This document shows positions 11,813 to 51,180 of a stretch of 64,000 nt of DNA, in pieces. Below the pieces are notes generated by a model that had not been told where the DNA came from, searched no databases, and was given only the letters and a program-made list of their open reading frames with translations. The first letter of the stretch is position 1. Each line of letters begins with the position of its first letter. The stretch is from Portulaca oleracea. Lineage: Eukaryota; Streptophyta; Magnoliopsida; Caryophyllales; Portulacaceae. Position numbers and translations under genes: made by a program. The stretch spans positions 47,758,513-47,822,512 of the forward strand of contig CM055870.1 in assembly GCA_029582165.1 (NCBI GenBank), in the 5' to 3' direction.

Positions 11813-11893
11813 AACTAAGGAACGAATATACATTTGTTGAAACAAGTCTAGAAATCTAGCTTTCGGCAGAGACTCTAAGGTTTGTATATATTC
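11813..11893 (-). CDS. ERD6-like: ERD6-like exon 10
   Basis: 27 codons, EYIQTLESLPKARFLDLFQQ then MYIRSLV, the loop end before helix 7. Acceptor CAG, donor GTAAGT. Intron 9 before it is only 107 bp. No following exon is visible within the 11.8 kb to the left edge. Confidence 0.94.

Positions 11894-51180: not shown

What the first reader, a model, noticed from the sequence alone, without database searches (positions are those of the whole stretch)
11813..51180. ERD6-like transporter gene stretched over more than 39 kb by transposons, with an intact frame
Seen: ten exons of 55-201 nt rejoin into 287 uninterrupted codons with GT-AG borders and compatible phases, although spread over 39.4 kb. Known: this family is about 480 residues with short introns in compact genomes. 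Inferred: the gene is still under selection and still spliced despite introns of 8 and 23 kb made of nested elements.
Basis: partly seen in the sequence, partly recalled or inferred. Interest (0 to 1): 0.87.

Follow-up and report, generated by a model that had tools for sequence, protein, structure and literature searches.

The report
Half a sugar-transporter gene, transposon-stretched
The first ten exons of a plant ERD6-like sugar-transporter gene lie in unbroken frame across 39 kb that include nested transposons, but no exon for the second half of the protein was found in the window, so the gene likely runs on past its edge and is likely an ordinary case of transposon-filled introns.

Summary
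Ten minus-strand exons (60-201 nt) between 51180 and 11813 join into 861 nt, 287 codons, no stop, GT-AG borders and matching phases. The protein is an ERD6-like (ESL) sugar porter, 57-64% identical to listed relatives at 94% coverage or more. But "intact" covers only the first half: no match to the later part of relatives (from about residue 289 of 484) rises above what the reversed window gives (26.2 against 26.6 bits), while the ten real exons reach 39.7-61.6. ESL genes mostly have 18 exons (PMC8450595, passages), so about eight are missing or lie beyond base 1.

Two thirds of the 23-kb intron is nested retrotransposons. Had the exons been neutral since three dated LTR insertions, 5-8 breaks would be expected; zero has P 0.0002-0.006 (0.0006-0.011 without methylation-type transitions). 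Changes avoid conserved columns (6 of 89 against 64 of 154). So constraint likely outlasted the insertions. Against full health: the longest terminal branch of 75 proteins and more private residues than any relative.

No RNA, dN/dS or own-genome test was possible. Very long introns in expressed angiosperm genes are documented (PMC10246380, passages). Interest is low.

The parts
50980..51180 (-). exon 1 (201 nt, codons 1-67, ATG at 51180)
47640..47702 (-). exon 2 (63 nt)
47419..47508 (-). exon 3 (90 nt)
46670..46729 (-). exon 4 (60 nt)
46086..46151 (-). exon 5 (66 nt)
38027..38092 (-). exon 6 (66 nt)
35500..35575 (-). exon 7 (76 nt)
35324..35388 (-). exon 8 (65 nt; encodes PESPRWL)
12001..12093 (-). 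exon 9 (93 nt)
11813..11893 (-). exon 10 (81 nt), last exon found in the window; followed by donor GTAAGT
38093..46085 (-). intron 5, 7993 nt, with a LINE-type remnant on the + strand (zf-RVT at 44812-45057); the rest not classified
12094..35323 (-). intron 8, 23230 nt
19701..35201 (-). outer Copia-type element in intron 8, aligned part of a short-LTR pair with K 0.14 (the left LTR is cut off or broken up near 19701)
   Evidence: RVT_2 and Pol_BBD
22615..29744 (+). Gypsy-type element nested in the Copia, LTR K 0.106, flanks CCTAA/TCTGA (weak match)
29951..33401 (-). short LTR element nested in the Copia, LTR K 0.155, flanks GTAAG/ATAAG; strand is my reading of a primer-site-like stretch beside the LTR
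855..8823 (+). Copia-type element downstream of exon 10, LTR K 0.104, flanks GTAAA/ATAAA
1..11812 (-). sequence after exon 10 in which no exon of the C-terminal part was found (intron 10 if the gene goes on)

Best explanation
This is the 5' part of an ERD6-like sugar-transporter gene that likely continues beyond base 1 of the window, is likely still functional, and is predicted to be transcribed and spliced through introns lengthened by retrotransposons. Shown: ten exons with an open joint frame and correct borders; introns of 8 and 23 kb, the longer one with nested LTR elements; no C-terminal exon found in the window. Inferred: the remaining exons (11-18 in the usual structure) lie beyond base 1, which would make the gene longer than 51 kb with a tenth intron of at least 11.8 kb; the elements are silenced, and the transcript is carried across them by the IBM2-type machinery that Arabidopsis and rice need for genes with heterochromatic introns; the product is a 12-helix monosaccharide carrier.
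For: Open frame and borders. Family match over the 287 residues; against 117 relatives its only length differences (relative to the majority) are 4 residues missing after residue 12 and 3 extra at 23, 24 and 37, in the variable N-terminus. The 10 exons are collinear with relatives. Neutral decay since the LTR insertions is unlikely: expected breaks 5.07, 6.07 and 8.33 for three LTR clocks, P(0) 0.0063, 0.0023 and 0.00024; 0.011, 0.0041 and 0.00063 after removing CG/CHG-type transitions. Substitutions avoid conserved columns: 6 of 89 against 64 of 154, Fisher P 1.4e-9; the six are conservative, BLOSUM62 0 to 3. Its 12 private residues are milder (mean BLOSUM62 0.17) than random non-synonymous changes of this sequence (-0.44) and than private residues of relatives (-0.65). 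The two elements nested in the outer Copia make the first insertion in intron 8 at least as old as K 0.155. Long-intron genes are expressed in another angiosperm (PMC10246380, passages); IBM2 is needed for transcription past heterochromatic introns (PMC7145194, passages).
Against: No exon of the C-terminal part found in the 11.8 kb after exon 10 or elsewhere in the window. Longest terminal branch of 75 proteins, 0.437 (next 0.299, median 0.115). Six departures at conserved columns against a mean of 0.99 and a maximum of 4 in the 74 others, and 12 private residues against a mean of 3.3 and a maximum of 10. Only 66-71% identical to five relatives that are 74-86% identical to one another. These fit relaxed constraint. 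No close protein (best 64% over full length) in the collection searched (only proteins of 0.55-1.75 times the query length are candidates), although a gene fragment captured in the same window has a 92% match over 62% of its length there: weak evidence against an expressed or annotated copy in near relatives.
Confidence: 0.6

Rival explanations
1. A truncated, recently dead copy: the C-terminal half was lost and the remaining ten exons have not yet had time to gather stops.
For: C-terminal exons not found in the window; long terminal branch; most private residues and most departures at conserved columns of 75 proteins; tandem duplication is common in the family, so one copy can be spared (PMC8450595, passages).
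Against: No stop, frameshift or broken GT/AG in 861 nt and 19 splice sites; if neutral since the two younger dated LTR insertions, P 0.002-0.006, or 0.004-0.011 without methylation-type transitions. A death much younger than those insertions cannot be excluded.
Confidence: 0.3
2. A shortened gene that makes a stand-alone six-helix half transporter ending in intron 10 (29 codons of read-through, then a stop).
For: Ten intact exons and signs of constraint without a C-terminal half in the window; read-through of 29 codons, and AATAAA downstream at 11638, 11363, 10897 and 9643, which an AT-rich stretch gives by chance too.
Against: Exon 10 keeps the donor GTAAGT. Of the 120 best matches listed, 117 have 455-505 residues; the others are P0064 (281, labelled partial), P0041 (380) and P0042 (416).
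Confidence: 0.05
3. A mis-assembly at or near exon 10 separates the two halves of a normal gene.
For: Only that the tail was not found; I saw nothing in the sequence that points to a join, and looked for it only through the element flanks.
Against: The Copia after exon 10 has both LTRs with K 0.104 and near-matching 5-bp flanks, as expected of a real insertion; no assembly data to test.
Confidence: 0.05

Closest known systems
ERD6-like (ESL) monosaccharide transporters, 'ERD6-like 16' type
   Same: Sequence over all 287 residues, exon-sized pieces collinear with relatives, Sugar_tr domain.
   Different: Only the first 287 of about 484 residues were found; longest branch of the 75 proteins compared; introns of 8 and 23 kb.
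Angiosperm genes with very long introns (Sapria himalayana, PMC10246380, passages)
   Same: Introns lengthened far beyond 1 kb, up to more than 100 kb in 23 genes there.
   Different: There expression was measured; here there is no RNA evidence.
Genes with intronic heterochromatin that depend on IBM2 (Arabidopsis, rice; PMC7145194, passages)
   Same: Transposable elements inside introns, as in the genes that need IBM2.
   Different: Chromatin state and IBM2 dependence are untested here.

Membership tests
ERD6-like (ESL) sugar transporters | Closest sequence relatives are ESL proteins | tested here: met
   the 120 listed hits carry PF00083; where a source gives a specific name it is commonly ERD6-like 16 or 7; many are named only 'hypothetical' or have no name; 57-64% identity at 94-100% coverage
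ERD6-like (ESL) sugar transporters | Sugar porter domain | tested here: met
   PF00083 E 1.4e-39, but matched to profile positions 34-248 of 452 only
ERD6-like (ESL) sugar transporters | About 480 residues with both six-helix halves | tested here: inconclusive
   second half not found in the window; it may lie outside
ERD6-like (ESL) sugar transporters | 18-exon structure (50.49% of 515 ESL sequences; 17 in 24.08%, 16 in 8.35%; PMC8450595, passages) | tested here: inconclusive
   10 exons present and collinear; the rest cannot be seen; residue-level exon borders of the paper were not compared
ERD6-like (ESL) sugar transporters | Sugar transport activity | not testable with these tools
   needs expression in a transport assay
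Expressed gene with transposon-filled introns | Introns made of identifiable elements | tested here: met
   intron 8: 67% inside the outer Copia; intron 5: one LINE-type remnant
Expressed gene with transposon-filled introns | Spliced transcript across the long introns | not testable with these tools
Pseudogene | Stops, frameshifts or broken splice sites | tested here: not met
   none in 861 nt and 19 splice sites
Pseudogene | Loss of part of the coding region | tested here: inconclusive
   second half not found, but the window ends 11.8 kb after exon 10

The most novel reading that the evidence does not exclude
The locus encodes a stand-alone six-helix ERD6-like half transporter that has been kept under selection after a retrotransposon cut off the second half of the gene.
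Probability: 0.05. Interest if true: 0.65.

Novelty: new member of a known kind. Interest (0 to 1): 0.22.

Why it matters
If the gene is whole, it is one more plant gene whose short exons survive within tens of kilobases of dated, nested retrotransposons, and the LTR clocks give a lower bound on how long splicing across a 23-kb intron would have been tolerated. It would make a usable test case for dependence on the IBM2 machinery. It does not change what is known: genes with far longer introns are reported in Sapria, and ultra-long introns in a conifer (PMC10246380, passages).

Tried and rejected
Chance exon chain: rejected. C-terminal exons overlooked for lack of sensitivity: unlikely, because the same search found exons down to 20 codons at 39.7 bits or more (best query), and the C-terminal hits do no better in the window (26.2) than in the reversed window (26.6). 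Places hit by many C-terminal queries: the most frequent is around 10302-10373, hit by 73 of 117 queries (the hits shown align the part that should form exon 11), but on the + strand (against the gene), with a stop inside and at most 23.5 bits; another, 5006-4938 on the minus strand, lies opposite the captured gene and reaches 24.3 bits. I read both as chance; an inverted, decayed exon 11 at 10.3 kb is not strictly excluded. Acceleration as proof of death: not accepted; deviations at variable columns (64 of 154) are close to those of the most divergent relative (63 of 156), though conserved-column departures and private residues are the highest of the set. Root-to-tip length is tied by midpoint rooting and is not used. 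Naming the species: not achieved. The ESL tree puts the protein with a group that holds Ancistrocladus (Caryophyllales), Nepenthes, Dionaea, Chenopodium and Opuntia (the same order, recalled), bootstrap 42; a captured gene fragment has Spinacia (Caryophyllales) among its closest named matches; the Copia ORF was uninformative (best 54%). The donor-match counts are off by one base and the exon ends were provisional; neither is used. Paper searches: 9 papers; 4; 23, 10 listed; 15, 10 listed; 0 for ERD6-like + pseudogene + intron + transposon insertion; 103 with 4 of 6 terms, 10 listed, none used. Seen as passages only: PMC8450595, PMC7145194, PMC9364684, PMC10246380.

Full report
Check of the observation. 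Reading the minus strand gives ten exons at 51180-50980, 47702-47640, 47508-47419, 46729-46670, 46151-46086, 38092-38027, 35575-35500, 35388-35324, 12093-12001 and 11893-11813 (sequence; ends). They join to 861 nt, 287 codons without a stop; the nine whole introns are GT-AG and the phases fit. The joint protein hits Pfam Sugar_tr at E 1.4e-39 and 2088 proteins at E 0.001 or better among 4629 candidates; the best is a 493-residue protein of Ancistrocladus abbreviatus, 64% identical over 100%. Where a source gives a specific name it is commonly ERD6-like 16 or 7. Solved relatives by sequence include GlcP and plant sugar transport proteins 6 and 10.

What the title leaves out. The 287 residues match the first 288 or so of about 484 residues. 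I ran tblastn with 117 full-length relatives against the whole window, both strands. Each of the ten exons is found (104 of 117 queries for exon 1, 117 of 117 for the others; best bits 39.7-61.6, medians 31.6-53.1; exons 7 and 8 fall in one hit across their 111-nt intron) (first run with 21 queries). For the C-terminal part 2272 hits remain after dropping 190 that overlap real exons (themselves at most 26.2 bits); the best has 26.2 bits. The reversed window gives 2510 hits and 26.6 bits. So nothing rises above chance. The typical ESL gene has 18 exons (50.49% of 515 sequences; 17 in 24.08%, 16 in 8.35%; PMC8450595, passages). So the window likely holds ten of eighteen exons, and helices 7-12 are missing or lie beyond base 1. 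The frame is intact for half a transporter.

What stretches it. Self-comparison shows repeat pairs that I read as LTRs at 22614-23885/28460-29747, 855-1797/7888-8824, 29951-30658/32703-33403, and a short pair at 19701-19814/35090-35201. Kimura distances are 0.106, 0.104, 0.155 and 0.140. At 7e-9 and 1.3e-8 substitutions per site per year (rates recalled, not from a call) these are 7.5/4.1, 7.4/4.0, 11.0/5.9 and 10.0/5.4 My. Protein domains name the elements: Gypsy type at 24390-27993 (Retrotrans_gag, RVT_1; rve below its cut-off), Copia type at 2084-6130 (Retrotran_gag_2, rve, RVT_2), and on the minus strand Copia type at 33841-33323 (Pol_BBD) and 21702-20846 (RVT_2; the part at 21702-21082 below cut-off). 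The last two flank the Gypsy and the short LTR element, and pieces that I read as the gag-pre-integrase and integrase parts of the same Copia adjoin their ends, so those two are nested in an older Copia. It spans 67% of intron 8; the part from 12094 to 19700 was not classified. The short LTR element has flanks GTAAG/ATAAG, the Copia after exon 10 GTAAA/ATAAA, and the Gypsy CCTAA/TCTGA, a weak match. Intron 5 holds a LINE-type remnant on the + strand, known by one domain (zf-RVT, E 2.9e-9).

Is it still under selection? Two tests, neither a dN/dS. First, LTR divergence gives the neutral number of stops, frameshifts and splice-site losses since insertion, on 861 nt plus 19 splice sites, if exons mutate like LTRs: 5.07, 6.07 and 8.33 expected for the three long LTR pairs; zero observed; P 0.0063, 0.0023 and 0.00024. 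Without transitions of the CG/CHG kind, which methylated elements gather faster, P is 0.011, 0.0041 and 0.00063. Second, in a leave-one-out count on 243 core columns, the window protein departs at 6 of 89 conserved and 64 of 154 variable columns (Fisher P 1.4e-9). This integrates over the whole branch, so it also reflects the time before any recent change. Both suggest that the coding sequence was constrained well after the introns were filled. They do not exclude a recent death.

Against full health. In a 75-protein tree the window protein has the longest terminal branch (0.437; next 0.299; median 0.115). It is 66-71% identical to P0001, P0037, P0008, P0032 and P0019, which are 74-86% identical to each other. 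It departs at 6 conserved columns, where the other 74 depart at 0.99 on average and 4 at most, and has 12 residues seen in no other sequence of their column, against 3.3 on average and 10 at most. The changes are mild: the six have BLOSUM62 0 to 3, and the twelve average 0.17 against -0.44 for random changes. Relaxed constraint, or an old paralogue without sampled relatives, would both fit. The protein collection gave no near-identical copy. The set of relatives was chosen by similarity to the window protein, which biases these comparisons.

Mechanism. I commit to a working gene that runs on past base 1 (0.6). The transcript would have to cross 23 kb and then at least 11.8 kb, in part probably silenced elements. 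In Arabidopsis and rice this needs IBM2; without it, transcripts end early inside heterochromatic introns (PMC7145194, passages). That step is inferred for this plant. The product would be a monosaccharide carrier of the ESL type (inferred from family).

Novelty. Sapria himalayana, also an angiosperm, has 23 genes with introns over 100 kb, and 640 of its 1000 most expressed flower genes have introns of 1 kb or more; the same passage names Pinus tabuliformis for ultra-long introns (PMC10246380, passages). Long introns with transposable elements in gymnosperms are reviewed in PMC9364684 (passages). This locus is a further member of a known kind. Interest 0.22.

Noticed in passing
3922-5473: Mutator-like element (Pack-MULE type) nested in the Copia at 855-8823: inverted repeats of about 390 bp at 96.7% identity and a perfect 9-bp target duplication ATTAAGAAA. 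It carries an ORF (4725-5096) of a host gene for an uncharacterised plant protein; 114 matches, among them 77% over 93% and 92% over 62% of the query without names, and others from Spinacia and Bienertia.
   Followed up: partly
46250-46645 and 49311-49809: Two palindromic, MITE-like repeats (self-complementary at 73% and 68%) inside introns 4 and 1.
   Followed up: no
9516-9692, 9985-10164, 12789-12943: Three related direct repeats of about 155-180 bp (72-77% identical) on either side of exons 9-10, of unknown kind.
   Followed up: no
10302-10373: Weak match (at most 23.5 bits, a stop inside) to the part that should be exon 11; this place is hit by 73 of 117 queries but on the opposite strand; probably chance.
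   Followed up: partly
54833-56934: Decayed Copia-type element on the + strand upstream of exon 1 (SH3_retrovirus domain; ORFs).
   Followed up: no
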